This document shows positions 29,870 through 64,000 of a stretch of 64,000 nt of DNA, in pieces. The stretch is from an uncultured Bacteroidales bacterium (lineage in GTDB: Bacteria > Bacteroidota > Bacteroidia > Bacteroidales > Paludibacteraceae). Both the position numbers and the translations under genes were made by a program. The notes beneath the pieces are model-generated. The model saw nothing but the letters and a program-made list of their open reading frames with translations. It had not been told where the DNA came from and did no database searches. Position 1 is the first letter of the stretch; each line of letters opens with the position of its first letter. Where the stretch lies: the NCBI GenBank assembly GCA_902774185.1, contig CACYHE010000001.1, positions 44,332 through 108,331 of the forward strand, read 5' to 3'.

Positions 29870-30901
29870 ATGAAGATACTTGTAGTAAGTAGATATAAGG
29901 ATAACTTTGCGGATCATCAGCTTCCGTTCGTGACAGAGCAGGGGGAGGCTATACGCGATTATTTGAATCGCGAAGGTAAGAGTGAAGAGGTAAGAGGTAA
30001 GAGAGTGTCTTCGGAAGTGGAGTACTTCTTAGTAAAGGGAAATTATGTGAAGGCGGTGAAGGCGTTGAAGACGAAGATTCGGGAGTTTAAACCGGACATC
30101 GTGCATGCGCATTATGGCTTATCTGCCATTACAACTGAACTGCAATCCCTTGTTCCCGTCGTCACTACTTTCCATAATGGCGAGACACATAATTGGCATG
30201 TTAACTTCATGACATCGCTGATGTCGTTGCGAGCCAAACACGTGATATATGTAGCGCAGCATATACGCGATTTAGTATATTTTAAGGCGAAGAACTATTC
30301 TATCATACCTTGTGGAGTGAGTTTGGAGGATTGCTTCTTGATGGACAAGGCAGAGGCGCGGAAGAAGTTAGGGTGGAGTGATGATAAGAAGTACATCCTA
30401 TTTGGCGGGGCGTTTGACAATGAAAGAAAGAATTATGCTTTATTACGCGATGCTATTGCGAAACTCAACGAACAATCACCAATCACCAATCACCAATTAC
30501 CAATTGAGAGCGTAGAAATGAAAAATCTCACGCGCTCACAGTGTGTCCTCAGAATGAACGCATGCGATGTCTTCGCATTGCCGACGAAGAATGAGGGAAG
30601 TCCTCAGGCTCTTAAAGAGGCGATGGCGTGCAACTGTCCGATTGTCGCAACGGATGTGGCGGATATTAAGCATCTGCTCGGAGATTTGCCGGGACATTTT
30701 GTGCTGTCAAACAAAAGAGGCAATGCGGCGTGGTGGAAAGGAGATGAACATTCTATTGATGAAATGGTGCAATTGCTTAATGATGCATTGAAGTTCGAAG
30801 GACGAACGGAAGGACGCAAACGAATCGTGGAGTTAGGCTATACCAATGAACTAGTAGCAAAGAAGATTATTAAGATATATGAAGATATTATCCGAAAATA
30901 A
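29870..30901 (+). CDS. Glycosyltransferase family 4 with two repeat-derived insertions
   Basis: 343 residues, GT-B fold. The donor-binding half has ILFGGAFDNERKNYALL and FALPTKNEGSPQALKEAMAC, whose two Glu residues fit the EX7E motif. Two stretches look foreign: residues 35-48 (KSEEVRGKRVSS) come from an AAGAGGTAAGAGG repeat (29972-30006), and residues 201-213 (SPITNHQLPI) from an AATCACC repeat (30473-30507). Both keep the frame. They fall in places likely to be surface loops, so the enzyme may still be active. It overlaps the next gene by 23 bases. The donor may be the activated heptose, given the neighbours. Confidence 0.83.
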   Translation: MKILVVSRYKDNFADHQLPFVTEQGEAIRDYLNREGKSEEVRGKRVSSEVEYFLVKGNYVKAVKALKTKIREFKPDIVHAHYGLSAITTELQSLVPVVTTFHNGETHNWHVNFMTSLMSLRAKHVIYVAQHIRDLVYFKAKNYSIIPCGVSLEDCFLMDKAEARKKLGWSDDKKYILFGGAFDNERKNYALLRDAIAKLNEQSPITNHQLPIESVEMKNLTRSQCVLRMNACDVFALPTKNEGSPQALKEAMACNCPIVATDVADIKHLLGDLPGHFVLSNKRGNAAWWKGDEHSIDEMVQLLNDALKFEGRTEGRKRIVELGYTNELVAKKIIKIYEDIIRK

Positions 30902-31916
30902 CATAAATCGAGACGAGTGGAACGCGTTAGTGCACGCATCAGCGACTGGCACATGGTTTCAATCTCCTGAGGCATTTGACTTTTTTGTGTCAATGCCGGA
31001 GTTATTTAAACCGTTTGCTGTCGCTTTAGCATGTGACCCCGCTGGGACTCAAACCCGGTTGCGTGCTATTTGTGTTGGTTTTGTGACAGTGGAGAAAAAT
31101 ACTGTGAAGCAATTTTTTACACGACGTGCTATCATTATCGGAGGTCCTTGTATTGCAGACGATTGCACGGATGAAGAGGTAGCTGCGCTGATGAAGGCGG
31201 TGAAAAGCACCCTCCTTTTAGGGAGGGATGGGGTAGGCTCCTCTCCCATATACATCGAAACACGGAATTTTAATGACTATTCTCGATGGAAAGGGGCGTT
31301 TGCGAAAGCCGGATTTAGTTATGAACCGCATCTCAACTTCCATGTGGATACGAGTAGTGTGGAGGTTGTTGAGGCGAATTTAGGCAAAAGCCGGAAACGA
31401 GATATACGTACGTCTTTGAGGGATGGTGCGACGATTATTGAAAAGCCGACATTGGAGCAAGTGCGGGAGTATTATGCGATATTGGCGAATCTGTACAAAA
31501 CACGTGTGAAGACACCGTTATTTCCATTCTCGTTCTTTGAGAAGTTATGGCAGCACAAAGATGGACGTTTCATTCTGGTTGCTTTGAATAATGAGATAAT
31601 AGGTGGCACCGTATGTGTGGAGCAGGAAGGGAAGTGCTTATTCGAGTGGTTCGCATGCGGACGAGACGGAGAATGGAAAACCATATTCCCATCGACAGTG
31701 GCTACGTACTCCGGCATTCGTTATGCTGCAGAGCATAACTGCCCACGCTTCGATATGATGGGAGCTGGAAAACCGGACGAAGCATATGGAGTACGAGATT
31801 TTAAAGCAAAGTTTGGTGGTACCGAAGTCGAACATGGCCGCTTCCTCTGCATCACGAAACCGGTGTTGTATCGCATTGGCGTACTCGGAGTGAAGATTCT
31901 AAAGAAACTGAAGTAG
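30879..31916 (+). CDS. FemAB-like GNAT acyltransferase with repeat-derived insertions
   Basis: 345 residues, a duplicated GNAT fold of the FemAB type (PF13480): IYIETRNFNDYSRWKGAFAK in the first half and NNEIIGGTVCVEQEGK then FDMMGAGKPDEAYGVRDFK in the second. Such proteins transfer amino acids or acyl groups in cell-wall or exopolysaccharide assembly. Two segments lack counterparts in the homologues I recall: residues 51-62, whose DNA resembles the T-arm end of a tRNA read backwards, and residues 109-122, encoded by a CCCTCC/GGAGGG hairpin repeat. Both are in frame. It closes the first glycan run; the next gene has its own promoter. Confidence 0.78.
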   Translation: MKILSENNINRDEWNALVHASATGTWFQSPEAFDFFVSMPELFKPFAVALACDPAGTQTRLRAICVGFVTVEKNTVKQFFTRRAIIIGGPCIADDCTDEEVAALMKAVKSTLLLGRDGVGSSPIYIETRNFNDYSRWKGAFAKAGFSYEPHLNFHVDTSSVEVVEANLGKSRKRDIRTSLRDGATIIEKPTLEQVREYYAILANLYKTRVKTPLFPFSFFEKLWQHKDGRFILVALNNEIIGGTVCVEQEGKCLFEWFACGRDGEWKTIFPSTVATYSGIRYAAEHNCPRFDMMGAGKPDEAYGVRDFKAKFGGTEVEHGRFLCITKPVLYRIGVLGVKILKKLK

Positions 31917-31997: not shown

Positions 31998-32008
31998 CGC
32001 TTGTAAAT

Positions 32009-34744: not shown

Positions 34745-35905
34745 ATGAAGGTATCGGATAGAGTGCATAGTATCGCAGCATCGCAGAGTTTGGCGATGGC
34801 GGCGAGAGCCAGAGCAATGAAGGCTGCAGGGATCGATGTGATCAGTATGTCATTGGGCGAACCGGATATGGAAACGCCTATTTATATTCGTCAAGCCGCG
34901 CAAGAAGCGGTTGCAGACGGTTGGTCGCATTATGGTCCCGTGGCGGGTATTCCGTCGTTGCGTGCCGCCATTGCGAGACAGCAGAATAATGTGGTAGGCA
35001 ATCGTATTGCGTGGGAGGCAGATGACGTGATGGTTTCTGTTGGCGCGAAGATGGCCATCTACAATGCCATTCAGACTGCTATCAATCCGGGAGATGAAGT
35101 GATTATTCCGATGCCGAGTTGGGTGAGTTACAGCGAGATGGTGAAGTTAGCCGGAGGTAAAGTCGTAGCCGTGGATACGAAGTTTGAGGACGACTACTGC
35201 ATGACCCCGGAGCAACTGCGTGCTGCGTTGAGTGATAAGACACGTATGCTGATTCTTTGCAGTCCGAACAATCCGACGGGCTCTATTTATAATCGTGAGA
35301 AATTAGAGGCACTGGTGGCCATATTGCGTGATTATCCGGAGGTTTGTGTGCTGTCGGACGAGATATATGCATCGTTATCGTACGACATCTCGCCTTTGAG
35401 TATGGCTGCTTTCGAACCCTTGTCTGATCGGTTGATCATCGTAAACGGTGTGAGCAAAGCTTATGCGATGACGGGATACCGAATCGGTTGGTTGATGACG
35501 AAGAATCGTCCATTTATCAATGCTTGTATTCGTTTGCAAGGGCAGCAGTTAACCTGTGCTACGATGGTGGCGCAGAAGGCAGCCGAAGCCGCTTTGACAG
35601 GTCCGCAGACTTGTGTGGAACAGATGCGAACGGTGTTTGAAGAACGCAGGGATTTGATTTGTCGTTTGGCTGCCGAGATACCCGGTTGGAAGTTCAAGAA
35701 ACCGCAAGGTGCGTTCTATCTTTTCCCGGATGTGAGTGCGATAGGTTACGGTAACGCGGTAGCAGAGATGCTGCTGGAGAAAGCGCATGTGGCAGTAGTA
35801 CCTGGTGTGGCGTTCGGTTGCCCGGAGTGTATCCGTTTGTCGTATGCTATATCAACGGAGGAGATCAAAGAGGCGATGAGGAGGATTAAGGAATTAGGGA
35901 ATTAA
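34745..35905 (+). CDS. aspC: Aspartate aminotransferase (class I PLP)
   Basis: 386 residues of aminotransferase family I-gamma, as in thermophile and Bacteroides AspC. Key sites: SPNNPTG (173-179), LSDEIYASLSY with the PLP-binding Asp (205) and Tyr (208), and the Schiff-base lysine K238 in NGVSKAYAMTGYRIGW. The C-terminal RLSYAIS holds the carboxylate-binding Arg. It interconverts aspartate/oxaloacetate and glutamate/2-oxoglutarate. The last codons (KELGN) already belong to an AATTAGGG repeat that fills the following gap. It could feed glutamate to the aminosugar transaminases but is probably a housekeeping gene. Confidence 0.92.
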   Translation: MKVSDRVHSIAASQSLAMAARARAMKAAGIDVISMSLGEPDMETPIYIRQAAQEAVADGWSHYGPVAGIPSLRAAIARQQNNVVGNRIAWEADDVMVSVGAKMAIYNAIQTAINPGDEVIIPMPSWVSYSEMVKLAGGKVVAVDTKFEDDYCMTPEQLRAALSDKTRMLILCSPNNPTGSIYNREKLEALVAILRDYPEVCVLSDEIYASLSYDISPLSMAAFEPLSDRLIIVNGVSKAYAMTGYRIGWLMTKNRPFINACIRLQGQQLTCATMVAQKAAEAALTGPQTCVEQMRTVFEERRDLICRLAAEIPGWKFKKPQGAFYLFPDVSAIGYGNAVAEMLLEKAHVAVVPGVAFGCPECIRLSYAISTEEIKEAMRRIKELGN

Positions 35906-35976
35906 CGAATGAACGAATGAAAGAATGAAAGAGTTAAGGAATTAGGGAATTAGGGATTAGTGATTAGAGATTGATT
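35906..35976. repeat. GAATGAA / AATTAGGG repeat tract
   Basis: Two kinds of word follow each other: GAATGAAC/GAATGAAA, then AATTAGGG, ending GATTAGTGATTAGAG. The start codon of the DUF456 gene directly follows. Confidence 0.85.
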
Positions 35977-37990: not shown

Positions 37991-39559
37991 ATGATTAAAG
38001 GACTCAAATATATTATTTTAGCAGCGAACATTGCTTTCTTTGCAGTGATGGCAATGGTGTTGCCGTTGGGATTTGAGGAAAATGACGATGTGGCAATGGC
38101 GATGATAGCCAACGGCAGTTATTCAGGTGCTCCGGACGGACATCTGGTGTTTATCAATATTCTGTACGGTTGGGTGATTGCTGCCTTGTATAGTTGGACA
38201 ACCGCCATCGAGTGGTACACCTTGGCTTTTGCTGTGTTGCAGATCTTATCAATGTCCGTCTTGGCTTATTGCATCTTGACGATGCCGAACCGGTCGAGAT
38301 GGGAACGGGTGTTATGGATGATACTGCTGTATGTCCTTTGGGCACGTATGATTGTAGCCTTGCAGTTCACGACGACAGCCGGAGTGGTATGTCTTGCCGG
38401 ATGCATGTTGCTGCTTAGGGAACGGAAAAGGGCACGATGGACAGGAGTGTTACTGGTGATTGTCGCATCGCTGATTCGTTATCATGCAGCCAGTTTGGTG
38501 GGTTTGCTGATGGCTCCGATCATCCTATTTACTTACCGTACGGAGTGGCGTAAGTACTTGCCGTTATTGCTGATGATGGTGGTGGCTGTCGGTTGCCGAA
38601 TGGTGAACAAAAAGATTTACGATAGCGATCCCGAGTGGAAATATTATCGGGAGTATAACATGGCAAGGGCGCAGTTGAATGACAACCCGAATGCATATAA
38701 ACTGCAGCAAGAGAACTTGCCGGAAGGAGTGGATATTGTTGATTACAAGTTACTCTTGCAATTCACTCCGGATGCGGAGCAGATAGATTTGCCTACGATA
38801 CAAGCTTTGCAGAAACGGGTAGGTGAGACACCCAGAAAAGAGCAATTCAGAAATCTGCATCGGTTGGATAAGTACGTAGTGGAGATCATTATTCTGCTGG
38901 CGATATTGGTGCTGATGATGCTTGCCACCGGTAATAAGTCGAAATATATCTTCTTGATTTTATATACCTTTTTCGTGATGGTGCTGATTATTCATGTAGG
39001 CATGACGGGTTTCTTGAAGAACCGTGTCTTCATCTGCATGTTAATGCCGATGATGATGACGGACTTTGTCTTATTGCCGAAGACGACCGGTACGAAACGA
39101 ACAAGGAGTATCGTTATTGTACTGGCTTTGTTGAGCGGATGGTATGTGTATCAAACGATAGATACGAAGATTAATGCGCACCGTAAAAAGGACAGCCTCG
39201 TGTGGGAGCAGATTCCGTTAATCAAGAGTGTGTCGGATAACTCGTATTTGGTGACTTTGGGTACTTCCATGCGTATGGAGGCGACGGATCCTTGGAACAT
39301 ATGGCCGTATTCGTGTCGCAAATATACCTTGGGTTGGATGACTTATATCCCGTTCAATAAGACGGTAGGGCATAGTTACAAGGCCTTGTTGCGGGACGAT
39401 GTCTATGTGTTCACCGATGCACGATACGCAGAAGAGAATACGGCTTTGCAACGTATCTGCGGACAGATAGAGAAACGTTATGGCATCCCTACCACCATCG
39501 AGTGCCTTAGTGCCAATGAACGATATGCGGTGGTGAAGATTAAAGAGATTAGAGATTAG
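37991..39559 (+). CDS. Polytopic membrane glycosyltransferase-like protein
   Basis: 522 residues, ten or so membrane segments. After TM1 comes LPLGFEENDDVAMAMIANG, an acidic loop where GT39/GT83-type enzymes carry their catalytic Asp, and the C-terminal 130 residues are soluble. This fits a GT-C fold transferase acting at the outer face with lipid-linked sugars. The ATG at 37991 (MIKGLKYII) is preferred; the upstream in-frame ATG at 37961 lies within the previous gene and a GTGTATGGTGTAAGG repeat. The final residues KEIRD are part of an AGATTAGAGATTAGGG repeat. Compare the similar protein at 45183. Confidence 0.7.
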   Translation: MIKGLKYIILAANIAFFAVMAMVLPLGFEENDDVAMAMIANGSYSGAPDGHLVFINILYGWVIAALYSWTTAIEWYTLAFAVLQILSMSVLAYCILTMPNRSRWERVLWMILLYVLWARMIVALQFTTTAGVVCLAGCMLLLRERKRARWTGVLLVIVASLIRYHAASLVGLLMAPIILFTYRTEWRKYLPLLLMMVVAVGCRMVNKKIYDSDPEWKYYREYNMARAQLNDNPNAYKLQQENLPEGVDIVDYKLLLQFTPDAEQIDLPTIQALQKRVGETPRKEQFRNLHRLDKYVVEIIILLAILVLMMLATGNKSKYIFLILYTFFVMVLIIHVGMTGFLKNRVFICMLMPMMMTDFVLLPKTTGTKRTRSIVIVLALLSGWYVYQTIDTKINAHRKKDSLVWEQIPLIKSVSDNSYLVTLGTSMRMEATDPWNIWPYSCRKYTLGWMTYIPFNKTVGHSYKALLRDDVYVFTDARYAEENTALQRICGQIEKRYGIPTTIECLSANERYAVVKIKEIRD

Positions 39560-39596
39560 GGATTAGGGAATAGCGATTAGAGATTTGCGATTAGTG
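39541..39596. repeat. GATTAGGG / GATTAGAGATT repeat tract
   Basis: Five or more copies of GATTAGRG-like words overlap the end of the membrane protein gene and reach to the start codon of the ATP-grasp gene. Confidence 0.85.
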
Positions 39597-41903
39597 ATGA
39601 AGAGTTTAGCAATCATAGGAGCCAGTTATCTACAACGGCCGTTGGTAGAACGTGCCAGGCAGATGGGGTTACGGACGATATGTTTCTCCTGGCCGGAAGG
39701 AGCAGTATGCAAAGAAATCTGCGATGTGTTTTATCCCATATCTATTACGGAGAAGGAGGAGATTACCCGCATATGCAAGGACGAGCGGATTGACGGAGTA
39801 TGTACCATAGCAAGCGATGTTGCTGCACCGACTGTGGCGTATGTAGCGGAACAGTTAGGGTTGACGGGAAACAAATACGAAGCAGCCGTTCGTGCCCATG
39901 ACAAGCATTTGATGCGTGCCGCATTGGTGGCCGCAGGTGTGGACTGTCCGCATTATGTAGTCGAAAGTAGAAAGTCAAAAGTCGAAAGAAGCGGGTTGGC
40001 ATTGCCGTTGATAGTGAAACCGAGTGATCGAAGCGGAAGTCTGGGTGTACAAAAAATCACCCGATGGGAGGATTTGGATGCGGCAGTACAAAAGGCGCTG
40101 GACGTGTCTATTATCGGTGAGGCGCTTATTGAGGAATATATCGAAGGCCGTGAGATAAGCGTGGAGATGATCTCGTGCGGAGGTGTGCATCATGCGTTGC
40201 AGATCACGGATAAGGTAACGACCGGAGCTCCGCATTTTGTAGAGTTGGCGCACCATCAGCCTTCGGATTTACCGGCAGCGATGCAGGATCATATTTTTGA
40301 TATCTCTCGTCAAGCATTGGATGCGCTGGGTTTGACGAATGGAGCAAGTCATTCGGAGTATAAGATTACCAAAGAGGGCCGTATTGTGGTGATGGAGATA
40401 GGTGGCCGTATGGGAGGAGACTTCATTGGTTCGAACTTGGTGCAGTTGAGTACCGGATATGATTTTCTGCAAGGTGTGATAGAGGTGGCATTGGGAGAGA
40501 CGATACAACCCGTGAAGACCAAAGCGGCATATAGCGGTGTGTATTTCTTGAGTGGTGTGACACCTGAAGTGCAGTTCTATATTACTCATGCATCGGATTA
40601 TAAGCAGATCGTGCTATCGGAACAGACGGATACGGAGATTCGTCCGTTAACCTGCAGTGCCGATAGAAGCGGTTATTTTATATACTGCGATGCGCATCGT
40701 CGTTTTGAGACACTGCGAGATAAAACAGTGATGGTACTTGGAGGCGGACGCTATCAGTTACCGCTTATTCGAGCCGCACGCGCAGCCGGATGCCGGGTGC
40801 TGGTATTGGGTTGGCCGGGTGATTTCCCGGGATACGAGTATGCAAGCAAGTGGTATGATGTCGATATTATGGATTCGGATGCGGTGATCCGTATTGCGAA
40901 GGACGAAGCGATAGACGGTATAGTGGGGTGCGGCTCGGATTTCATTTTACCAACCATCGGTCGTGTGGTAGATGCATTGGGTTTACCCGGAACGGGTTAC
41001 CATTCCTCGGTTGTGGCAAGCGACAAGAGTCTGATGAAAGCCGCTTTTGCGCGAACCGGAGTTCGTACGGCTATTTATGAGCAGGTAGAAAATAAAGAAC
41101 AAGCCATAGAAGCGGCAGAGCGCATCGGTTATCCTGTTGTGCTGAAAATCGTAGATGGCAGTGGAAGCAAAGGGGTGGTGATCTGTCAAGACACCCAAGC
41201 CTTGGGAACTGCCTATGATGATGTATTGCCCTTGACGCATCATCCCTATATGGTGGTAGAGCAATTTGTGGACGGCGTGGAGTTTGGTGCGCAAGCCTTT
41301 GTACAGAATGGTCATTTGCAGTTCGTGATGCTGCATGGAGATATTGTCTATCAAGGAAATAGCGGAATACCGGTAGGGCATTATGCACCGTCTTTGACGG
41401 AATATGAAGGATTGCAAGCAGACGCAGAGGAGCAATTACGTCGTGCTATTGAAGCATTGGAGATAGATAACTGCGCCATCAATGCGGATTTCATCTTGCA
41501 TGACGGCAAGGTGTTTGTATTGGAGATAGGGGCACGTGCAGGAGCTACCTGTTTGCCGGAATTGGTGAGCGAATGTTATTCGATAGATTATTACACCTGC
41601 CTTCTCTGCGGAGCATGCGGATTGCCTTTGCCTGACATGAAACGAGACCGCTTACATCCGGCATTGGTTTATACGCCGTTTAGCACGAAGACGGGAACGG
41701 TGAAAGCATTACACAAACCGACATGCGAAGGAATCGTTGCATGTGAGATCTATCCGCAGGTGGGCGATGAGGTGCATGCCTTCCGTACAGCCTATGACCG
41801 GATTGGTCATCTGGTGATGGAAGGGGAGAGCATGGAGGAATTACTGCATTGTTTTGAGACGCAGATCCAACCGTTTGAATTTGTACAAGTGTCAGAAAAT
41901 TGA
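39597..41903 (+). CDS. Tandem-duplicated ATP-grasp ligase
   Basis: 768 residues holding two complete ATP-grasp units in one chain. Unit 1 (about 1-372) starts SLAIIGASYLQRPLVERARQ and includes LPLIVKPSDRSGSLGV and VVMEIGGRMGGDF. Unit 2 (about 374-768) starts TVMVLGGGRYQLPLIRAARA and includes YPVVLKIVDGSGSKGV and FVLEIGARAGATC. In both, the Lys, the Gly-rich loop and the E-I-G metal site are present, so both may be active. ATP-grasp enzymes join a carboxylate to an amine; here the likely role is adding an amino acid to a glycan precursor. Residues 122-131 (ESRKSKVERS) come from a GTCGAAAGTAGAAAG repeat. Confidence 0.85.
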   Translation: MKSLAIIGASYLQRPLVERARQMGLRTICFSWPEGAVCKEICDVFYPISITEKEEITRICKDERIDGVCTIASDVAAPTVAYVAEQLGLTGNKYEAAVRAHDKHLMRAALVAAGVDCPHYVVESRKSKVERSGLALPLIVKPSDRSGSLGVQKITRWEDLDAAVQKALDVSIIGEALIEEYIEGREISVEMISCGGVHHALQITDKVTTGAPHFVELAHHQPSDLPAAMQDHIFDISRQALDALGLTNGASHSEYKITKEGRIVVMEIGGRMGGDFIGSNLVQLSTGYDFLQGVIEVALGETIQPVKTKAAYSGVYFLSGVTPEVQFYITHASDYKQIVLSEQTDTEIRPLTCSADRSGYFIYCDAHRRFETLRDKTVMVLGGGRYQLPLIRAARAAGCRVLVLGWPGDFPGYEYASKWYDVDIMDSDAVIRIAKDEAIDGIVGCGSDFILPTIGRVVDALGLPGTGYHSSVVASDKSLMKAAFARTGVRTAIYEQVENKEQAIEAAERIGYPVVLKIVDGSGSKGVVICQDTQALGTAYDDVLPLTHHPYMVVEQFVDGVEFGAQAFVQNGHLQFVMLHGDIVYQGNSGIPVGHYAPSLTEYEGLQADAEEQLRRAIEALEIDNCAINADFILHDGKVFVLEIGARAGATCLPELVSECYSIDYYTCLLCGACGLPLPDMKRDRLHPALVYTPFSTKTGTVKALHKPTCEGIVACEIYPQVGDEVHAFRTAYDRIGHLVMEGESMEELLHCFETQIQPFEFVQVSEN

Positions 41904-47798: not shown

Positions 47799-48322
47799 TC
47801 CGCTTCATATATGCGGAAGGGCTTGTGGTATGGTTCCCATGGGGTAGGGAAACCATGCATCATGACCCATATAATGCTGTCGGTGGTCGCTTGACTGAAC
47901 TGGCGTTCTTCTTCGAGCAAACGTTCTTTCAGCGTCTTGGTAGGGGTATTCAGTTCTGCGGCATGCAGAGCCCGGAACTGCTCTTCTTCTGCAGCCAAGT
48001 CCGCCATCACTTTCGGGTAGATCTTATCGAATAACTGCGGATGGGCAGTGTACCAGACGATGGAGGAATCGAACTGGGCTTGTGTAATATGATGCTTCTC
48101 CAGTACCTGCGCGTAATAGATGTTTCTCTTCTCCTGGTCGCCTCGTTTAAATCCGGATACCTGCATCGCAGCATCGGCTTTGTGCAGATCTTTCAATACA
48201 GACCGCATCTCACCCGAATGCAGGATGCCTCTCGGACGGCAACTGACTAATAGGATTGTTGCGAACAGTCCTATTAGTATTTGTAATTTGAGATTTGATA
48301 TTTGCAATTTATTTCTTTTCAC
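47795..48322 (-). CDS. DUF4296 lipoprotein
   Basis: 175 residues with a lipoprotein signal: a basic start, a hydrophobic stretch and LLVSC with C28 as the acylated cysteine. The mature part is helical and fits DUF4296 (PF14129): LKDLHKADAAMQVSG, then YAQVLEKHHITQAQFDSSIVWY. Function unknown. The N-terminal peptide is odd: residues 5-15 are encoded by an AATTTGAGATTTGAT repeat, and the hydrophobic core by a 15-bp inverted repeat. It overlaps lspA, whose product would process it, by 14 bases. Confidence 0.85.
   Translation of the reverse strand: MKRNKLQISNLKLQILIGLFATILLVSCRPRGILHSGEMRSVLKDLHKADAAMQVSGFKRGDQEKRNIYYAQVLEKHHITQAQFDSSIVWYTAHPQLFDKIYPKVMADLAAEEEQFRALHAAELNTPTKTLKERLLEEERQFSQATTDSIIWVMMHGFPTPWEPYHKPFRIYEAD
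48246..48278. repeat. 15-bp inverted repeat inside a lipoprotein signal sequence
   Basis: ACTAATAGGATTGTT (48246-48260) and AACAGTCCTATTAGT (48264-48278) are complementary with a single G-T pair, around a GCG loop. It codes for the hydrophobic core of the DUF4296 signal peptide, next to the lipobox cysteine. Confidence 0.85.
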
Positions 48323-51722: not shown

Positions 51723-52994
51723 ATGAGAAAAATAGCGTGTATAATAGTCTTTTTGTGTACGTTTGGCGGTCTTTTTGCGCAGACGCATACGCATATTTAT
51801 AAGGAGCAGATCCGTACCCTTCGTGTGGCACGGGAGGTGTTGATGCTGGATGATCCGGCACCCTTGCATATCTCGTTTGACGAGATGAGTCATGATGTAC
51901 ACATGTACACGTACACGGTGCAAATGTTAGCGCCGGAAGACGAACAGATAACGTATAACGGAGAATTGTTGAGCAGCGAGTACCTGCAGGGATTCACGAC
52001 GCAGGACATCACGGACTATGAACACTCGATCAACACGAGCAGGGAGTACACGCATTATTGGTTTGAGTTCCCCAACGAAGACATGCGGATCACCAAGAGC
52101 GGGCTGTACCTGTTGACCATCTATGAGGACGGTAATCCGGACGATAGGGTGGCAGACGTGATGTTCTGCGTGGTGGAACCGAAAGTGAAGATAGACGCCA
52201 AGGTGCGGGCGAATACAGATATTGAGTTCAACGGACGCTATCAGCAGGTGGATGTCGATGTGACGATGAGTGAAGAGCTAAGAGGAGTGTACACTGAAGA
52301 GTGGAGAGTGGTGGTGACCCAAAATAACCGTTTGGATAATGCGGTGACTTTGACGAGGCCTACGTTCGTAGAACCGAACCGCCTACGCTATATCAATACG
52401 AAGGACCTGATCTTCGAGGGTGGAAACGAGTACCTGCATTTTGATGCATTCAGTTGTTTCTATGCGGGTTACGGTATTGACCGAGTGGTTCATGAGATGG
52501 GTGACTACCATGCGGTGCTGTTAGCGGATGAGAAACGTACGGACCAATATATCCATCAGTTCGATTCGGACGGCCGATATGTGGTGAACGCCGAGCGAAC
52601 GGGGGATGTGGACACCGAAGCCGAATATATGTGGGTACACTGGACGCTGCCTATGGAGCAGCCATGGTTCGACGGGGCGTTGTATGTAGGCGGTGATCTG
52701 TTCGGCAATGAGTTGGGCATGCCTAACCGGATGCAGTACGATGCGGAAAGGAAGGCGTACTGGTTGACTGCCCTCGTCAAGCAAGGCGGTTATGACTACC
52801 AATACTGGTTTGTCCCGAAAGAGAAAATGACCAATCACAAATCACCAATTACAAATAATAAAACCACCACCCAACGAGTGGATGGCAGTTATTGGCAGAC
52901 GGAAAACGAGTATGCGATCTATGTCTGGTGGCGTCCGTTCGGAGCTCGTTACGACCGCCTCGTCGGTGTACAGATACTAAAATCGACCCTCTGA
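51723..52994 (+). CDS. DUF5103 type IX secretion plug protein (PlugT9SS-like)
   Basis: 423 residues with a cleavable signal peptide (MRKIACIIVFLCTFGGLFAQ). The mature protein fits DUF5103 (PF17116): QIRTLRVAREVLMLDDPAPL, YTVQMLAPEDEQITYNGELL, HYWFEFPNEDMRITKSGLYLL and YGIDRVVHEMGDYHAVLLADE. Plug is the periplasmic gate that closes the SprA translocon of the type IX secretion system, so the organism probably has T9SS. Residues 369-381 (MTNHKSPITNNKT) are encoded by an AATCACAAATCACC repeat and interrupt a beta-rich domain. The stop codon lies in the loop of the terminator hairpin. Confidence 0.87.
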   Translation: MRKIACIIVFLCTFGGLFAQTHTHIYKEQIRTLRVAREVLMLDDPAPLHISFDEMSHDVHMYTYTVQMLAPEDEQITYNGELLSSEYLQGFTTQDITDYEHSINTSREYTHYWFEFPNEDMRITKSGLYLLTIYEDGNPDDRVADVMFCVVEPKVKIDAKVRANTDIEFNGRYQQVDVDVTMSEELRGVYTEEWRVVVTQNNRLDNAVTLTRPTFVEPNRLRYINTKDLIFEGGNEYLHFDAFSCFYAGYGIDRVVHEMGDYHAVLLADEKRTDQYIHQFDSDGRYVVNAERTGDVDTEAEYMWVHWTLPMEQPWFDGALYVGGDLFGNELGMPNRMQYDAERKAYWLTALVKQGGYDYQYWFVPKEKMTNHKSPITNNKTTTQRVDGSYWQTENEYAIYVWWRPFGARYDRLVGVQILKSTL

Positions 52995-53010
52995 GAGGGC
53001 CGATTTTTTA
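52979..53010. terminator. Bidirectional intrinsic terminator
   Basis: AAAATCG-A-CCCTC and GAGGG-C-CGATTTTTT pair around TGA, which is also the stop codon of the DUF5103 gene. T-runs on both strands make it suitable for ending both the DUF5103 and the lysS-gpsA-pgi transcripts. Confidence 0.8.
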
Positions 53011-53045
53011 TTGGTCATTTGTCATTGTTCATTGGTCATTTGGCC
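53011..53045. repeat. TCATTGGTCATTTG repeat tract
   Basis: Four copies of a TTGGTCATT/TTGTCATT word lie between the terminator and the end of pgi. The pgi stop codon itself falls in the last copy. Confidence 0.8.
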
Positions 53046-55367: not shown

Positions 55368-55407
55368 CATAAATCCATTTACGATTTGGTCATTTACCAT
55401 TTACCAT
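55368..55407. repeat. CATTTACC / GGTCATTT repeat tract
   Basis: The words CATTTACGATT, GGTCATTTACC and ATTTACCATTT fill the gap between lysS and gpsA and could add ten residues to GpsA if translated from the upstream ATG. Confidence 0.75.
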
Positions 55408-56979
55408 TTATTCCGGACGCATCGTCGGGAATAAGAGTACCTCTTGAATGGTGGGTTGGCCGGTCATGAACATTGCCAGACGGTCGATACCGATACCGAT
55501 ACCCGAGGTAGGGGGCATGCCGTATTCGAGGGCACGCATGAAATCGTGGTCGATGACCATTGCTTCGTCGTCACCCTTGTCTGCCAGTTTCATCTGCTCT
55601 ACGAAGCGGTTGTACTGGTCGATGGGGTCGTTGAGCTCCGAATAAGCGTTTGCCAATTCCTTACCGTTGACCATCAACTCAAAGCGCTCGGTCAGACCGG
55701 GTTTGGAGCGGTGTAACTTGGTCAGCGGACTCATCTCAACGGGGTAGTCGGTGATGAAAGTCGGTTGGATGAAGGTACCTTCGCAGGTCTCGCCGAAGAT
55801 CTCATCGATCAGCTTGCCCTTACCCATGTGCTCGGTATCTTCGACGCCGAGTTTCTTGGCTTCGATACGGATCTCGTCTTCGCTCATAGCGGCAAGGTCG
55901 AGTCCGGTTTTCTCCTTGATGGCATCGAGGATAGGCAGACGGCGGTAGGGGGCTTTGAAGTCCACCTCATGGTCACCAATCTGCACCTTGGTCGTGCCGT
56001 TGACGGCGATCGCGATGCGCTCCAATAGCTGCTCGGTGAAACTCATCATCCAGTTATAATCCTTATATTGCACGTACAGCTCCATGCAGGTAAACTCGGG
56101 GTTGTGGTTGCGGTCCATACCTTCGTTACGGAAGTTACGACCGATCTCATATACGCCCTCAAAACCGCCTACGATGAGACGTTTGAGGTAGAGTTCAGTA
56201 GCGATACGGAGGTACATATCCACGTCTAGCGTGTTATGATGCGTGATGAAGGGACGCGCCGACGCACCGCCTGCTATCTGTTGCAGGATCGGGGTTTCCA
56301 CCTCGGTGTAACCTGCCTCGTCGAAGACCTGACGCATGGTACGCAGGATGGCTGCACGTTTGAGGAAAGTATCCTTGACACCTTCGTTCACCACCAGGTC
56401 AACATAACGCTGACGGTAACGCTGCTCGGGGTCGTTGAAGCCGTCGTATGCCACACCGTCTTTGTATTTGACGATTGGCAGCGGTTTGAGGCTCTTGGCG
56501 AGCACGGTCAATTTCTTGGCATGCACGGATATCTCACCCATCTGGGTACGGAAGACAAATCCCTCGATACCGATGAAGTCACCGATGTCCAACAGTTTCT
56601 TGAAAACGACGTTGTACATCTGCTGCTCCACGGTCCATTCACCATTTTCACCATTTGCACCATTTTCACCATTCGGCTCCGCAGGAGCCTGGATATCATC
56701 CCTGCTCACATAGACCTGGATACGTCCTTTGGAGTCCTGTATCTCGATGAAGGATGCCTTACCCATGATACGTTTGGACATCAGACGTCCGGCGATACGC
56801 ACTTCGTCACCCGTGTGCCATTCACCATTTTCACCATTTGCACCATCCACGAATCCAGCTTTGATGTCTGTGGAGTATCCGGTTACTTCATACTCAGCTG
56901 CAGGGTAGGGGTCGATGCCCATTTCCCGCATTGTTTGCAGACTTTGTCTGCGCACGATCTCTTGTTCACTTAATTCCAT
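55408..56979 (-). CDS. lysS: Lysyl-tRNA synthetase (class II) with two identical peptide insertions
   Basis: 523 residues. The anticodon-binding OB fold is residues 55-145 (GRLMSKRIMGKASFIEIQDS). The class II core has motif 2 RNFRNEGMDRNHNPEFTCME and motif 3 GIGIGIDRLAMFMT. It charges tRNA-Lys. Unusually, the peptide GANGENGEW occurs twice, at residues 46-54 and 107-115, on either side of the first OB strands; the DNA is a TCACCATT word repeated (56816-56848 and 56634-56675). These stretches have no place in LysRS proteins I know. Since the gene should be essential, the insertions are presumably tolerated. Confidence 0.93.
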   Translation of the reverse strand: MELSEQEIVRRQSLQTMREMGIDPYPAAEYEVTGYSTDIKAGFVDGANGENGEWHTGDEVRIAGRLMSKRIMGKASFIEIQDSKGRIQVYVSRDDIQAPAEPNGENGANGENGEWTVEQQMYNVVFKKLLDIGDFIGIEGFVFRTQMGEISVHAKKLTVLAKSLKPLPIVKYKDGVAYDGFNDPEQRYRQRYVDLVVNEGVKDTFLKRAAILRTMRQVFDEAGYTEVETPILQQIAGGASARPFITHHNTLDVDMYLRIATELYLKRLIVGGFEGVYEIGRNFRNEGMDRNHNPEFTCMELYVQYKDYNWMMSFTEQLLERIAIAVNGTTKVQIGDHEVDFKAPYRRLPILDAIKEKTGLDLAAMSEDEIRIEAKKLGVEDTEHMGKGKLIDEIFGETCEGTFIQPTFITDYPVEMSPLTKLHRSKPGLTERFELMVNGKELANAYSELNDPIDQYNRFVEQMKLADKGDDEAMVIDHDFMRALEYGMPPTSGIGIGIDRLAMFMTGQPTIQEVLLFPTMRPE

Positions 56980-58894: not shown

Positions 58895-61198
58895 TTAATC
58901 TATATATGGGCACATTTCCTTTTTCAGCAACCACTCGATGGCGTGGCGGTAGATCTTATCGAAAGACTGAACGGCTTCGAGGGGGAAGGAGTAGACGAGG
59001 GTGCTCGTCTTATAACCCACACCGGCGGGACAGCGCATGTCTTCGTAGGACGCCATGCGGATGGCGAGGGTGTCGGTAGGCATGATGCCTTCCGGAGCGG
59101 GGGTGAAGAGTTGTTCTTCGTTGGGCTCCAGTTGGAGTTGGTAGATCCGATGACGAGGCGAAGTGATCCGTCCGCTGCGGGTGGCTCGTGCGGCATAGAA
59201 ACGGGCATGGAGACAGGTGTCTGCCCATACGGGATCGATGGCACTGAAATGGTCGGTACTGAGCAGCAGGCGACCACCGTTTGATAAGTATTCAGTGATC
59301 AGTGAATAGCTTTCAGTTTTTAGCGGAACTCTATTCCGGCCGCAGACAATATCCAATAAGACCGCTTTGCTGACAGAGCACAGACCGTCCTGCGGACTGA
59401 CAGAACACAGATAGCCTTCGGTGCAGGAGGTATAGCTGATTTTCATCTTCCATAGTTCACGGCCGTGTTGCGCGGCATAGTCACGGGTATTGCCGATGGT
59501 GAAGAAACCGGCATGATCCCGATAGCAGGCACCCCAACCGCAGTTGTCATCATCCTTCCACTCATCGGCACGGTCATAGTTCCATTGCTGACCGATATAG
59601 GCGCAGCTGAACCCGTCTTCACAGGCGTAGGTACCGGGTACGATTCCGGCATGCAGGGAGTCCGCAAACCATTCGGGACCGTAAACATCGTGGAAAGCAT
59701 CTACTATAAGTACCATTTGGTCATGTACCATGTACGATTTATTTTCCATTTGGTCATTGAGATAAGCGCTGATGATGGGGGAGGGGAAGGAGAGACCGCC
59801 ATCGTTGCCGGCTACGACATAGTAGTTATACCGGATACCGGGTTGGAGGGGAAGAAGGACCTGCGTGTCGGTTACCTGCTGCACGTCCCACTCGCCATCG
59901 TTGGCTTGGGTATAAACCATGTAATAGGTAGGCATAGCGGTCGGTTCCAAGGAATCCGTGACCGGAATCCAGCGGAGAAGGGCAGATTGGTCATTGGTGA
60001 ATTGGACGCCTAAATCCCGGATGGGTAGGGGTTGGACGATAGCGGACTTACCGTTGATATAGCGCAAGATACCTTTATATACGGCCCTGGAAGCGGCAAA
60101 ACGGAAGTTCGGATCCAAGCCGTATCGCATATCTGCCATGTTTTTATGGCTGAGCAGTTCGAGAATGAGACTCGGCACGTCGGGCACACGACTCTCGCAG
60201 TAATTGGCTTCTTTGAGTTGCCGTCTGGTCCATTCGGGCGCAAGGGTTCGCAGGTCGTTGGTGACCTGTGTCTGGATGATATCTGCCAGGTTGCGGTTGA
60301 CGCGTTCCCTGTCCTTGCCATTCCGCAGCACGGTGAGTCCGCTGTCATTCTTAGCGGTATAGATGACGAGGGTGCCGATGATGGTGGAGTCGTTTCCGCT
60401 GTCCTGTCCGTCGGTATGGAAAGCGAGGCAGAGGTCGATAGGTACCTTGAGCGAGTTGACCCACATCGCCCGACATTTCATGTCGTCTTTGTATTCATCC
60501 CCTTCGTACAGGTCCCAGAGGGTGGTGTCTGCGTTCTGACTCATCAACCAGTACCGTGCACCTTCGGTCCATTGGGGCATGCCGGATACACCGAGCGCCT
60601 GCTGACTGAGGTCGGCACGAGGCGTATAGATCGTTGCACCGGCGTTCTCTAACATCTGCCGGATGAGACGCACGTACTCCTGACTGTACAGGTCTTCGAC
60701 GGTGGTCCAGAGGGTAGCACGCTGCCAGATCCATTCTTGGCGGTCTCTATTAAAATAGAGACCATGACTCGGATAGAGGGCGATATTATGCTCGGTCAGG
60801 TCATGCTGCTTACCGGCAACCATGATGCCCTTGGCGCAGTCGGTGACGAGGTCGTCGATATTGGTTTTGCCTGCCTGTATGGTGATTTTTCCTTTCTCAT
60901 GCCCGAGTACCCAAAAACTGACTTTGCGCTTGGCTTCGGTCACCAAAGCCGGTGTCCAACGCACGTCTTTGAGGATCGTATTGGTACGGACGGTCACTTT
61001 ATTCTTATCCACCCGCATGCTCTTGACCTTGACGGACGACGACCATGCCGGAGAGAAACCGGTCCATACGGTGAGCGAGTCTCCTAATTCCTTCATGCCG
61101 ATTTGGGCGTGTATAGGAGCACAGAACACAGAGCACAGAACACAGATCGATAATGCTATGTATTTTAGATTTAATATTTTAGATTTGAGATTTGTCAT
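58895..61198 (-). CDS. Secreted N-acetylmuramoyl-L-alanine amidase-like protein with fibronectin-type domain
   Basis: 767 residues. A signal peptide ends near residue 32 (CAPIHAQ). An Amidase_3-like zinc peptidase core covers about 160-390: YPSHGLYFN (first His), LCLAFHTDGQD (second His) and SLILELLSHKN (Glu). A fibronectin III-like segment (about 400-500) and a C-terminal beta-rich domain follow, as in the Bacteroidales 'xanthan lyase'-annotated amidases. It should cut peptidoglycan stem peptides in the periplasm. Several stretches come from short repeats: the signal peptide, NDQMENKSYMVHDQM, CSVSPQDGLCSVS and LKTESYSLITEYL. It overlaps the preceding TraB-like gene by four bases. Confidence 0.82.
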   Translation of the reverse strand: MTNLKSKILNLKYIALSICVLCSVFCAPIHAQIGMKELGDSLTVWTGFSPAWSSSVKVKSMRVDKNKVTVRTNTILKDVRWTPALVTEAKRKVSFWVLGHEKGKITIQAGKTNIDDLVTDCAKGIMVAGKQHDLTEHNIALYPSHGLYFNRDRQEWIWQRATLWTTVEDLYSQEYVRLIRQMLENAGATIYTPRADLSQQALGVSGMPQWTEGARYWLMSQNADTTLWDLYEGDEYKDDMKCRAMWVNSLKVPIDLCLAFHTDGQDSGNDSTIIGTLVIYTAKNDSGLTVLRNGKDRERVNRNLADIIQTQVTNDLRTLAPEWTRRQLKEANYCESRVPDVPSLILELLSHKNMADMRYGLDPNFRFAASRAVYKGILRYINGKSAIVQPLPIRDLGVQFTNDQSALLRWIPVTDSLEPTAMPTYYMVYTQANDGEWDVQQVTDTQVLLPLQPGIRYNYYVVAGNDGGLSFPSPIISAYLNDQMENKSYMVHDQMVLIVDAFHDVYGPEWFADSLHAGIVPGTYACEDGFSCAYIGQQWNYDRADEWKDDDNCGWGACYRDHAGFFTIGNTRDYAAQHGRELWKMKISYTSCTEGYLCSVSPQDGLCSVSKAVLLDIVCGRNRVPLKTESYSLITEYLSNGGRLLLSTDHFSAIDPVWADTCLHARFYAARATRSGRITSPRHRIYQLQLEPNEEQLFTPAPEGIMPTDTLAIRMASYEDMRCPAGVGYKTSTLVYSFPLEAVQSFDKIYRHAIEWLLKKEMCPYID
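61119..61198. repeat. CTCTGTGTT / AATCTAAAA repeats encoding a signal peptide
   Basis: On the minus strand, AAATCTCAAATCTAAAAT words are followed by CTGTGTTCTGTGCTCTGTG. They encode the first 26 residues of the amidase. A 49-base near-copy starts the upstream TraB-like gene (62037-62097). Confidence 0.85.
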
Positions 61199-62097
61199 TT
61201 GCTTATTTTGATAGTTCTATTATACGGACGGACACGATAACCGGCCGTACGAAGTTGCTCTAACAGTCCTTTGTCGCCACCGAGATAGATGGCATTGAGG
61301 GTGATGAAACAAGCGCCTTCGGTCAGATGCGGTTTGAGTCGTTTTACCCATTGTATGTTTCGTTGGGCGTACACCTGATAGTCGGAGTAGGAGAGGGAGG
61401 TGTTGTTATTGGGACTCTCGACCTGAAAGGCGATGTCGGTTAACCGTCCATCCCGATACATATCGCGCAGCGTACGCTCTTGTTTCACTTCGTTCTCCGG
61501 ATACTGTAGTGCGCGGAGCAGGTCGGTACACTGCCAATGGAAGGGTTCACGGTCAAAGAGCATGTACATCGTCTCGCCCACGCCGTCTAATCCGACCACC
61601 GGCATGTCTTGCTGTGCCGCCACATGTTCGAAGAAATTCTCCATCGAAGTCTGCTCGTCGTACCCCAACCATTGCTTGCATAACTCCGCCCTAAAAAGCT
61701 CGGTCAGGTACGCCGGTTTCATGCGGCATAATTGGTCCAAACCCATGCCTAAATGGATACGAAGAGTGTTGTCGATAAACTCGTAATCCTTTTCGCTATA
61801 GAAATTGGAAAGTTTGACACTGTCCGGCAGAACCGCCGCTTGACGCAACGCAGCGAGGGCTTCGTAGTCCTGCATGGCAAATTCCGTCACCACTTTATGG
61901 CATTGCGAGAAGCATTTGAACACATTGGGAATGGTGTCTAAAAACTGCATCTCCACATTGCGGTTGGTGGCAAGAATATAGGATTTGGCTTTGGCGCCGT
62001 TTCCGCTGATCTCGTATAAAAGCTGTGCTTTTAATGGAACACAGAACACAGAGCACAGAACACAGACCGATAATGCTATGTATTTATGATTTGTCAT
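61195..62097 (-). CDS. TraB/GumN family protein
   Basis: 300 residues with a signal peptide ending near residue 25 (CVPLKAQ). The mature protein has the TraB/GumN (PF01963) pattern: LYEISGNGAKAKSYILATNR at the start (GxxHxxG of the family appears as ATNR here), MPVVGLDGVGETMYMLF mid-way and ACFITLNAIYLGGDKGLLEQ LRTAGYRVRP at the end (E-x-L-x-x-G-Y). The normally conserved His-Xaa-Gly of the first GTxH motif seems absent, so activity is uncertain. The signal peptide sequence KYIALSVCVLCSVFC is nearly the same as in the next gene and is made of the same DNA repeat. Confidence 0.78.
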   Translation of the reverse strand: MTNHKYIALSVCVLCSVFCVPLKAQLLYEISGNGAKAKSYILATNRNVEMQFLDTIPNVFKCFSQCHKVVTEFAMQDYEALAALRQAAVLPDSVKLSNFYSEKDYEFIDNTLRIHLGMGLDQLCRMKPAYLTELFRAELCKQWLGYDEQTSMENFFEHVAAQQDMPVVGLDGVGETMYMLFDREPFHWQCTDLLRALQYPENEVKQERTLRDMYRDGRLTDIAFQVESPNNNTSLSYSDYQVYAQRNIQWVKRLKPHLTEGACFITLNAIYLGGDKGLLEQLRTAGYRVRPYNRTIKISK

Positions 62098-64000
62098 TTG
62101 AATCGTGTGATCATGTTATACGCTTGATAGATACCGAGTTCACCTGCTTTGCTCAGGTCGGCAAGGCCTTTCTCATTCTCGCCAAGGAAGACATAGGTCA
62201 GTCCTCTGTTGAAATAAGCTTCCGCAAAGTCTGCATCGCGTTCGATGGCTTTGGTATAGTAGTTAATCGCCTCCTTGTATTCCTGCTTGGCGCAGAGGAT
62301 ATTGGCTTTGTTATAATAGGCGAAGACGAAGTCGGGTTGCAGTCGGATCACATGGTCGTAGTCCCGGAGGATGAGTTCAAAGTCCCCGTCCGGCAAGCGG
62401 TAACGCCAGTTGGCACGGCAGAAAGAGATGAGCACCTCCAAGTCCTTATCCGCCAGCACGATCGCCTTGGTGCAGTCATCGATGGCACTCGCATAATCCT
62501 TGATGATGGCGAATTCGACGGCGCGGGAGTAGTATAACGTTGAAAGTTGAACGTTGAAAGTTGAAAGGTTCTCCGCTTGTACCTGCTCTATTTGCGTGGT
62601 GAGGCGGTTGATTTCGGCGAAATGGAAGTCCACCATCTCGGCAGTCAGGGTCATCTCCTGCGGCGTGAAACGCAGGGCAGCCGGCAGGGCTTGGCTTTTG
62701 TTGATTTGTTCCACCAAGGGATGGTAATAGTTGGTACGACGCAGGCTCATGTCCGTACTGTAGTAGGACAAGATGATCTGGGGTTCGTTGACGATATCCT
62801 GGTAGCGTTTCTGCACGTTACCCCGTGTCTGCGAATCGTATTTCTGTTCCTCTTCGGCGGGCTCGTTCTGGTTCTGCGCGGCGTTCGGCGAGAACTCCTT
62901 CCGATGGTCTTTCTTCTGCGGTTGGGCTTGTGCAATCAGCAAGTCCGTATGGGGTTTGGCGGCTTGCTTGGCTTGTATCTCTTCCTTATGTTCCTCCAAA
63001 TCCTGCGCTTTGAACCGGTAACGGTACGCCTCTTTGTCGTTGCCCTGTTGCTGGTAGGCTTGGGCGATCATGTAATAGGCGGGCAGGAAATAAGGATAGC
63101 GTGCGATGAGGGTATCGAGGTCGGTGATGACGTTTTTCCATTGCTTGAGTTGCATGCCGACCAGCGCACGCTGGTAGCGCATCTCGGTTTTCTCGGGCGC
63201 CAAGTCGATGGCTTTATTGAGGTCCTCCAAGGCATGGTTATAGTCACCCACCTCTTGCCGCATCACGCCCCGGTTATAGTAACAGTCGGCATCCCGCGGC
63301 GACAGTTTGACGGCTTGGTCGTAGTCATTGAGGGCACCCCTGTAGTTATGTCTGCGATAATGGATGATACCTCGGTTGATGTAATCGCCAGCCCATTTGG
63401 AGCCCAAGTTAATCGCTTGCGTGAGTTGGATATAGGCCTCCTCTTCGCGTTGGAGCATCAGACTTGTGACACCCAGTGCCGACCATGCGGCAGGGTTGGT
63501 ACGGTCATACTGCGTCACTTTCTCAAAGGCTTCCAGAGCCGCCAAGGTGTCGGCTTGGAGGAAGGCTATCTGTCCTTTCTCGCTCCATATGGAGGGGCTG
63601 TTGGGTTCGCGTCGCAGCAGTTGTTCGATATCCTCCATGGCGGCATCGTACTGCTTCATCTGCGCCCGGGTGTCGGCACGCAGGAGCAGGTAGGTACGGT
63701 TCTCCGGCGAGAAATGCAGGGCTTCCGAATAGTCCGTCTCGGCTTCCTGTAAGCGGTTGAGTTGGCGGTAGATAAAGCCCCGTGTGTAATAACAACCCGG
63801 AGAGAATGGATTGCGCTCTATGGCGGCGTTGCAGTCATTGAGGGCACCTTGGTAGTCCTCCAGTTGGATCTTGGCGATGGAACGGTAGAAATAGGGTTCC
63901 GCCAAGTAGGGTTTGAGTCGGATGACCTGGTTGAAATACTGGATGGACAGCACGTAGTCCTCAAAATACAAGGCATTCCGTCCGATCGCCGTAATGCGGT
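62094..64000 (-). CDS. TPR-repeat protein, 5'-truncated by window edge
   Basis: At least 634 residues; the frame stays open to the right edge (reading RITAIGRNALYFEDY before the first in-window start candidate), so the N-terminus lies outside. It contains about ten tetratricopeptide repeats, for example AYYNKANILCAKQEYKEAIN and AYFNRGLTYVFLGENEKGLA at the C-terminal end and YFYRSIAKIQLEDYQGALND at the start. A charged low-complexity spacer separates two TPR blocks. It is probably periplasmic or outer-membrane-associated scaffolding, judging from Bacteroidales relatives. A TTGAAAG/TTGAACG repeat (62537-62570) encodes NLSTFNVQLSTLY in frame near a TPR boundary. It overlaps the TraB-like gene by four bases. 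Confidence 0.87.
   Translation of the reverse strand, partial: RITAIGRNALYFEDYVLSIQYFNQVIRLKPYLAEPYFYRSIAKIQLEDYQGALNDCNAAIERNPFSPGCYYTRGFIYRQLNRLQEAETDYSEALHFSPENRTYLLLRADTRAQMKQYDAAMEDIEQLLRREPNSPSIWSEKGQIAFLQADTLAALEAFEKVTQYDRTNPAAWSALGVTSLMLQREEEAYIQLTQAINLGSKWAGDYINRGIIHYRRHNYRGALNDYDQAVKLSPRDADCYYNRGVMRQEVGDYNHALEDLNKAIDLAPEKTEMRYQRALVGMQLKQWKNVITDLDTLIARYPYFLPAYYMIAQAYQQQGNDKEAYRYRFKAQDLEEHKEEIQAKQAAKPHTDLLIAQAQPQKKDHRKEFSPNAAQNQNEPAEEEQKYDSQTRGNVQKRYQDIVNEPQIILSYYSTDMSLRRTNYYHPLVEQINKSQALPAALRFTPQEMTLTAEMVDFHFAEINRLTTQIEQVQAENLSTFNVQLSTLYYSRAVEFAIIKDYASAIDDCTKAIVLADKDLEVLISFCRANWRYRLPDGDFELILRDYDHVIRLQPDFVFAYYNKANILCAKQEYKEAINYYTKAIERDADFAEAYFNRGLTYVFLGENEKGLADLSKAGELGIYQAYNMITRFK

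What the first reader, a model, noticed from the sequence alone, without database searches (positions are those of the whole stretch)
29972..62570. The same repeats lie in frame inside coding sequences
At least nine in-gene stretches look like gap repeats that kept the reading frame: GT4 gene (29972-30006 and 30473-30507), FemAB gene (31209-31245), ATP-grasp gene (39960-39990), DUF5103 gene (52827-52865), lysS (two), the amidase (59281-59316, 59363-59411, 59697-59757) and the TPR gene (62537-62570). The peptides they encode (such as SPITNHQLPI, NHKSPITNN, NLSTFNVQLS) do not fit the surrounding families. This recalls Rickettsia palindromic elements, but with simple words instead of palindromes, and it would be a route to new protein segments.
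Basis: partly seen in the sequence, partly recalled or inferred. Interest (0 to 1): 0.82.

Follow-up and report, generated by a model that had tools for sequence, protein, structure and literature searches.

The report
Heptamer repeats inside bacterial protein genes
In a group of uncultured gut bacteria, short tandem repeats of seven DNA letters, with different words in different species, sit in frame inside many protein genes, where they form variable loops and parts of protein-export signals.

Summary
The core observation holds and is wider than reported, but not every stretch fits. Orthologues in a genus with 36 other genomes show most are lineage-specific; two (ATP-grasp, amidase 59281) replace sequence without clear length change. 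Other species carry different heptamers at the same loops.

In 464 kb of this genome there are 94 heptamer arrays, 54 in ORFs and 41 well inside. Arrays favour four units, have family-specific boundaries, and each genome has its own vocabulary. All 25 in-ORF arrays whose word holds a stop triplet carry a variant base that removes it, against 7 of 120 intergenic readings (ORF calling biases this). Arrays also encode parts of signal peptides, in 7 of 14 orthologous amidases.

They work like Rickettsia palindromic elements but are not members: no palindrome, about 30 nt. They are a coding variant of known heptamer repeats. Insertion, replacement and translation pressure are supported by sequence; the copying mechanism is inferred.

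The parts
29980..30005 (+). heptamer array (AAGAGGT type) in GT4 glycosyltransferase
   Evidence: period-7 score 13; extra relative to 4 of 5 orthologues
30473..30505 (+). heptamer array (CAATCAC) in GT4, peptide QSPITNHQLPIE
   Evidence: shorter in 3 of 5 orthologues, other words in L130 and L131
31209..31245 (+). palindrome-like insert in FemAB gene, another repeat class
   Evidence: no period 7; hairpin; 9 of 19 other orthologues have no insert
39959..39988 (+). heptamer array (AAAGTCG) in ATP-grasp gene, peptide VVESRKSKVER; replacement rather than insertion
   Evidence: equal length in 6 of 17 others, same word in L175, other words in L169 and L173
52826..52856 (+). heptamer array (AATCACC) in a loop of DUF5103 (Pfam T9SS plug, 1st domain)
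   Evidence: 22 of 30 orthologue rows have no insert, other words in L042 and L047
56821..56846 (-). 9-nt repeat in first lysS loop
   Evidence: period 9; loop varies among 30 congeners
56638..56673 (-). 9-nt repeat in second lysS loop
59281..59316 (-). weak heptamer-like stretch in amidase, no length change
   Evidence: p7 score 7; arrays at the same place in L072 and L081
59363..59411 (-). 27-nt-spaced duplication in amidase
   Evidence: longer than 16 of 17 orthologues
59697..59757 (-). weak heptamer-like insert in amidase
   Evidence: p7 score 7; longer than 15 of 17 orthologues
61117..61146 (-). heptamer array encoding the hydrophobic part (CVLCSVFC) of the amidase signal peptide
61162..61193 (-). 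heptamer array encoding the N-terminal part (NLKSKILNLK) of the same signal peptide
62037..62066 (-). heptamer array encoding the hydrophobic part of the signal peptide of a TraB/GumN-family protein
   Evidence: Pfam PF01963 from residue 26
62536..62567 (-). heptamer array (AAAGTTG) in TPR gene, peptide NLSTFNVQLSTLY
   Evidence: 14 of 15 orthologues of at least 71% identity lack it
48277..48304 (-). heptamer array in the N-terminal part of a lipoprotein-like signal peptide (coordinates approximate)
28836..28870 (.). intergenic heptamer array (AAACTTT)
39544..39592 (.). heptamer array spanning the end of one gene and the start of the ATP-grasp gene
53010..53040 (.). intergenic heptamer array (AATGACC)
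55391..55410 (.). short heptamer array between lysS and the next gene; the same gap holds arrays with other words in other species or none

Best explanation
The stretches are mostly members of a genome-wide population of short, non-palindromic, tandem 7-nt arrays of about four units (near 30 nt), with a vocabulary of words particular to each species. New arrays appear between and inside genes. Selection removes those that break the frame or hold an in-frame stop, so the survivors lie in tolerant places: variable loops, linkers, and the N-terminal and hydrophobic parts of signal peptides. Because 7 and 3 share no factor, an array reads the same seven-residue cycle in any frame, so a stop-free word is open in all three frames of that strand. 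Shown here by sequence: lineage-specific arrays, frame kept, different words at one site, four-unit preference, fixed boundaries, species vocabularies. Inferred: that a new array is copied from an existing one, or one unit is re-read several times, during repair synthesis primed by a few matching bases, either adding the array (net 28 nt in the clearest intergenic cases) or replacing a native segment.
For: Abundance: 94 arrays in 464 kb at score 14 or more, 54 in ORFs, 41 at least 20 residues from both ends of ORFs of 150 aa or more; no array of that score in 3 shuffles of 204 kb; at score 9 or more 152 against 5 and 1 in two shuffles. Orthologues: 42 period-7 arrays in 132 rows of six families, own rows included, against 0-3 for each of eight control periods. 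Independent gains: DUF5103 loop arrays in 3 of 26 genomes, 3 words, 3 changes on the tree. Frame: 17 of 17 coding filled/empty comparisons differ by a multiple of 3. Size: four units in 80 of 152 arrays here and 192 of 437 in all loci scanned. Boundaries: same end phase in 94 of 178 same-family pairs, same start phase in 62, 25.4 expected. Vocabulary: same word in 38 of 456 within-genome pairs against 43 of 5109 between genomes, own genome left out. Stops. Net 28 nt: three arrays in the lysS-gpsA gap have 28 as commonest difference.
Against: Order of variant units is not shared between loci more than in unit-order shuffles (42 pairs against mean 31.6, max 42 of 100), so copying of whole arrays is not proven. 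11 of 17 coding comparisons are replacements within 9 nt, which plain insertion does not explain. Only 5 of 8 intergenic comparisons with the nearest relative differ by a multiple of 7, 7 of 8 by commonest difference, and two of these (G021, L190) are probably one event. The stop test is biased because ORFs were called by openness. Arrays are about nine times rarer per kb in coding than noncoding sequence. No machinery was identified: no RVT_1 match in this genome, no Ku in 41 genomes, MutS present.
Confidence: 0.6

Rival explanations
1. Local birth: each array arises by replication slippage at a chance seed and is lengthened in place, with no copying between loci.
For: Heptamer preference has been linked to polymerase slippage in earlier work, as described in PMC4679880 (section read). 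Unit-order sharing is not significant. GT4 site 2 in G036 looks like a two-unit form of the own array.
Against: Species-specific vocabularies, family-specific boundaries, a size peak at four units instead of steadily falling numbers, and replacement without length change.
Confidence: 0.22
2. DNA-level function: arrays are sites for a DNA- or RNA-binding factor kept at about 30 nt by selection; those in genes are tolerated copies.
For: Uniform size. Several lie just before a start codon in the lysS-gpsA gap. TAACTGA heptamers of Beggiatoaceae lie mostly upstream of start codons (PMC4679880, abstract passage).
Against: 51 different canonical words at score 12 or more in one genome, no shared motif but the period; they recur within coding sequence of unrelated genes.
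Confidence: 0.1
3. Ordinary fast-drifting low-complexity linkers that look repetitive by composition, with no special process.
For: Most sites are variable loops in which other rows also differ in length. The two weak amidase stretches and the ATP-grasp linker fit this partly.
Against: Shuffles give almost none; other periods are rare in the same orthologues; five genomes of other families have none in 80 kb each.
Confidence: 0.06

Closest known systems
Rickettsia palindromic elements (RPE)
   Same: Small dispersed repeats both between genes and in frame inside conserved protein genes; inserted peptides unrelated to the host family; gene products can stay active (PMC2229807 and PMC3767692, passages seen).
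   Different: RPEs are 105-146 bp with long stem-loops; these are about 30 nt, unstructured and tandem, and the word changes between species.
Heptanucleotide simple sequence repeats: STRR of heterocyst-forming cyanobacteria, TAACTGA repeats, long simple sequence repeats
   Same: 7-nt units, tandem, dispersed over the genome, words particular to a group; TAACTGA repeats were also reported in five Bacteroidetes (PMC4679880 abstract passage).
   Different: Those are described mainly between genes. Repeat units of a multiple of three nt were said to be the likeliest in coding regions (PMC4679880 introduction); here 54 of 94 heptamer arrays lie in ORFs.
G-rich heptamer repeats of Xanthomonas and Nostoc
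   Same: Clear preference for four units, dispersed; 68% intergenic in Nostoc, so some inside genes (PMC4692102 abstract and passages).
   Different: There the four-unit preference is tied to G-quadruplexes. Here 0 of 437 arrays have four GGG runs on a strand, yet four units is still the mode.
MITE-derived signal peptides in Yersinia
   Same: A dispersed repeat supplying part of a signal peptide (PMC2229807 passage).
   Different: Here two short tandem arrays can supply the N-terminal and the hydrophobic part, in several unrelated secreted proteins of one genome.

Membership tests
Rickettsia palindromic elements | palindromic, stable stem-loop | tested here: not met
   4 of 94 arrays have an inverted-repeat arm of 6 or more, shuffled mean 9.55; 4 of 7 window arrays folded have a minimum energy of 0, the others -1.5, -1.6 and -3.0
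Rickettsia palindromic elements | about 100-150 bp | tested here: not met
   length peak 30-32 nt
Rickettsia palindromic elements | in frame inside protein genes as well as between genes | tested here: met
   54 in ORFs, 40 noncoding; 17 of 17 coding differences are multiples of 3
Heptanucleotide simple sequence repeats (STRR kind) | 7-nt tandem units dispersed over the genome | tested here: met
Heptanucleotide simple sequence repeats (STRR kind) | mostly intergenic | tested here: not met
   54 of 94 in ORFs by count, although density per kb is about nine times higher in noncoding sequence
G-quadruplex heptamer repeats | G-tracts in four units | tested here: not met
   0 of 437 arrays
MITE | terminal inverted repeats and target-site duplication | tested here: inconclusive
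   inverted arms not enriched; target-site duplication was not tested separately
Diversity-generating or other reverse-transcriptase system | reverse transcriptase in the genome | tested here: not met
   no RVT_1 match in this genome, which is 87% complete
Phase-variable contingency loci | unit number differs between cells of one strain and switches the frame | not testable with these tools
   no strain-level data

The most novel reading that the evidence does not exclude
A dedicated copying process writes about 28-32-nt heptamer cassettes all over the genomes of this clade, at sites with 2-5 matching bases, each species with its own vocabulary. Because a heptamer reads the same seven-residue cycle in every frame, it is a frame-blind generator of new protein segments, and it has repeatedly built loops and exchangeable signal peptides in conserved genes.
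Probability: 0.3. Interest if true: 0.87.

Novelty: new variant of a known kind. Interest (0 to 1): 0.72.

Why it matters
How new protein segments arise is usually reconstructed from ancient events. Here many recent cases can be compared at one site between congeners, with empty forms and different words, essential genes included. It runs against the expectation that repeats in coding sequence have units divisible by three, shows that a four-unit preference needs no G-quadruplex, and suggests a way in which signal peptides can be replaced as modules.

Tried and rejected
Reverse transcriptase as the maker: RVT_1 has no match in this genome, nor in G003, G006, G017 and G035, which also hold arrays. 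Loss of mismatch repair: MutS is present. Ku-type end joining: no Ku in 41 genomes. G-quadruplex explanation of the four units: excluded by composition. Copying of whole arrays with unit order: not significant. FemAB element as a dispersed family: one copy in the sampled own sequence. Four-helix-bundle (TIGR02436) genes as movers: 4 of 5 have an array within 150 nt, but so do 186 of 377 of all genes; no clear link with array density. Structure of lysS: mean pLDDT 56.2, pTM 0.47, too poor to place loops. Restriction to this genus: an AATT-spaced heptamer pattern occurs in 111 of 198 Bacteroidales genomes, own 106 against 36 for the reversed control, but strict arrays in four such genomes numbered 7, all outside ORFs, and 0 in 70 kb of one with 275 pattern matches. 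Rows dropped before counts: orthologues under 38% identity (GT4 kept 6 of 30 loci, ATP-grasp 18 of 30, amidase 18 of 30). Of 252 arrays with flanks, 76 had any comparison; under stricter filters 25 were counted.
Full report
What the organism is. The window lies in G000, 35 contigs, 2.19 Mb, 87% complete; 36 genomes are labelled same genus. The nearest named records by lysS are Paludibacteraceae or Bacteroidales MAGs, among them red deer, sheep, goat, water buffalo and horse samples. The genome's own name was not given.

Checking the stretches. Five of the 11 are period-7 arrays that no shuffled window matched; two amidase stretches are weak; the lysS stretches have period 9; amidase 59363 has best period 27; FemAB has none. 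Pfam places the genes as glycosyltransferase, FemAB/GNAT, ATP-grasp, T9SS plug 1st domain, class II tRNA synthetase, amidase 3 and TPR.

Homologues. lysS was aligned for 30 loci of the genus: both loops vary, and five rows hold six heptamer arrays with other words; L028 is nearly bare at both. In the DUF5103 loop 8 of 30 rows are longer by 24 nt or more; three are heptamer arrays with three different words, three changes on a 26-genome tree. The TPR array is in G000 and, with another word, in G015, and absent from the 14 other rows of at least 71% identity. GT4: site 1 is extra relative to 4 of 5; site 2 longer than 3 of 5. FemAB: own 75 nt against 54 nt in 9 of 19 others; the loop also holds a heptamer array in L371 and other repeat-like inserts in L365, L367, L374 and L376. 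Against the insertion reading: the ATP-grasp linker has the same length in 6 of 17 others, and amidase 59281 shows no length change. Over six families, 132 rows, there are 42 period-7 arrays and at most 3 for each of eight control periods.

Census. In 464 kb of G000: 94 arrays at score 14 or more, 54 in ORFs of a simple longest-ORF caller, 41 at least 20 residues from either end of ORFs of 150 aa or more. Density is 1.18 per kb noncoding and 0.126 per kb coding. Eight congeners had 0-8 in 100 kb each; five genomes of other families had 0 in 80 kb each. Smaller, locus-biased samples suggest some congeners (G015, G035, G006) are at least as rich and others have none.

Anatomy. Length peaks at 30-32 nt in coding and noncoding alike: four units in 32 of 67 intergenic and 48 of 85 in-ORF arrays, 192 of 437 overall. 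Arrays of one family start and end in the same phase more than chance: 62 and 94 of 178 pairs, 25.4 expected (pairs are not independent). Words are shared within genomes about ten times more than between (38 of 456 against 43 of 5109, own genome left out); with one mismatch allowed 81 pairs against a permutation mean of 31.4 and maximum of 58 in 500. The order of variant units is not shared beyond chance.

Filled and empty sites. 25 arrays had a relative of at least 74% flank identity without an array. Of 17 in coding sequence all differ by a multiple of 3: 6 are longer by 24-57 nt, 11 differ by 0-9 nt, i.e. replace sequence. Of 8 intergenic, 5 differ from the nearest relative by a multiple of 7, and 7 by the commonest difference. 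The lysS-gpsA gap is instructive: five of the 30 genus loci read GCATAATATG after the last shared lysS codon, others hold heptamer arrays with different words (six at score 12 or more), and in G018, G021, G026 and L190 the array supplies the lysS stop codon. Three arrays there (G021, L190, G018) have a commonest difference of exactly 28 nt; G021 and L190 may be one event.

Translation pressure. Of 123 internal in-ORF arrays, 25 have a sense word with a stop triplet; in 25 of 25 a perfect array would hold an in-frame stop and a variant base removes it. Of 120 strand-and-frame readings of intergenic arrays with such a stop, variants would remove all stops in 7. Because ORFs are defined by openness, this shows what survives; it is not an unbiased test.

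Signal peptides. Of 22 ORFs with an array starting in the first 45 residues, 12 look by eye like signal peptides partly encoded by arrays. Pfam on nine of them found GH81, TonB plug, Wzi (below its cut-off), DUF5686, OmpA/PD40, DUF4835, DUF5074, SusD and TraB domains. Some share modules: CVLCSVFC, or KVKGERLKVKG followed by FLSIFNFQFS. Of 14 orthologous amidases of at least 55% identity, 7 have an array in the first 40 residues, with different words except in G015 and G030, which share TTTCACT; in one (L080) only 18 nt. Signal-peptide prediction by a dedicated program was not available.

Mechanism. Insertion, replacement and filtering by frame and stops are read from the comparisons. That new arrays are copied from others, primed by a few matching bases, is inferred from vocabularies, phases and size. 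No enzyme was found: no RVT_1 in G000, no Ku in 41 genomes, MutS present.

Literature. RPEs in frame in Rickettsia genes, and a Yersinia MITE forming part of a signal peptide, are described in PMC2229807 (passages) and RPEs in PMC3767692 (passages). Heptamer repeats and the idea of polymerase slippage, and coding regions favouring units of three, are described in PMC4679880 (introduction read, other passages), which cites Mrazek 2007, not seen. Four-unit preference of G-rich heptamers is in PMC4692102 (abstract and passages). STRR within the cyanobacterial RNase P RNA gene is known to me here only from a title in a reference list. Searches of the held library listed no paper whose title or abstract start describes in-frame heptamer arrays across Bacteroidales genes; most subscription papers are not held.

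Noticed in passing
window 55391-55412 and loci L010-L034, L190: The gap between lysS and gpsA is empty in some species and holds arrays of different words in others; in several the array supplies the lysS stop codon.
   Followed up: partly
window 1677-2069, 4763-5128, 26793-27170, 28533-28844; L270:9269-9646: Five four-helix-bundle genes (the four in the window match TIGR02436, three with a weak match to DGR protein Avd below cut-off); 4 of 5 have an array within 150 nt, but so do about half of all genes.
   Followed up: partly
window 5129-5186, 35885-35956, 1616-1663, 2026-2117; G033 L312:7512-7655: Tandem arrays of period 8 and 22 here, and of period 11 up to 144 nt in G033.
   Followed up: no
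FemAB loop, window 31209-31245, and L362-L379: One loop that collects several repeat classes in different species: palindrome-like, heptamer and others.
   Followed up: partly
G017 L294:15709-15742 and L295:15963-15996: Two inverted copies of one heptamer array with matching 10-nt flanks, about 20 kb apart.
   Followed up: no
genomes G106, G071, G143, G052, G046: Other Bacteroidales families have 191-305 matches to an AATT-spaced heptamer pattern; strict arrays were few in the small samples fetched from G106, G071 and G143.
   Followed up: partly
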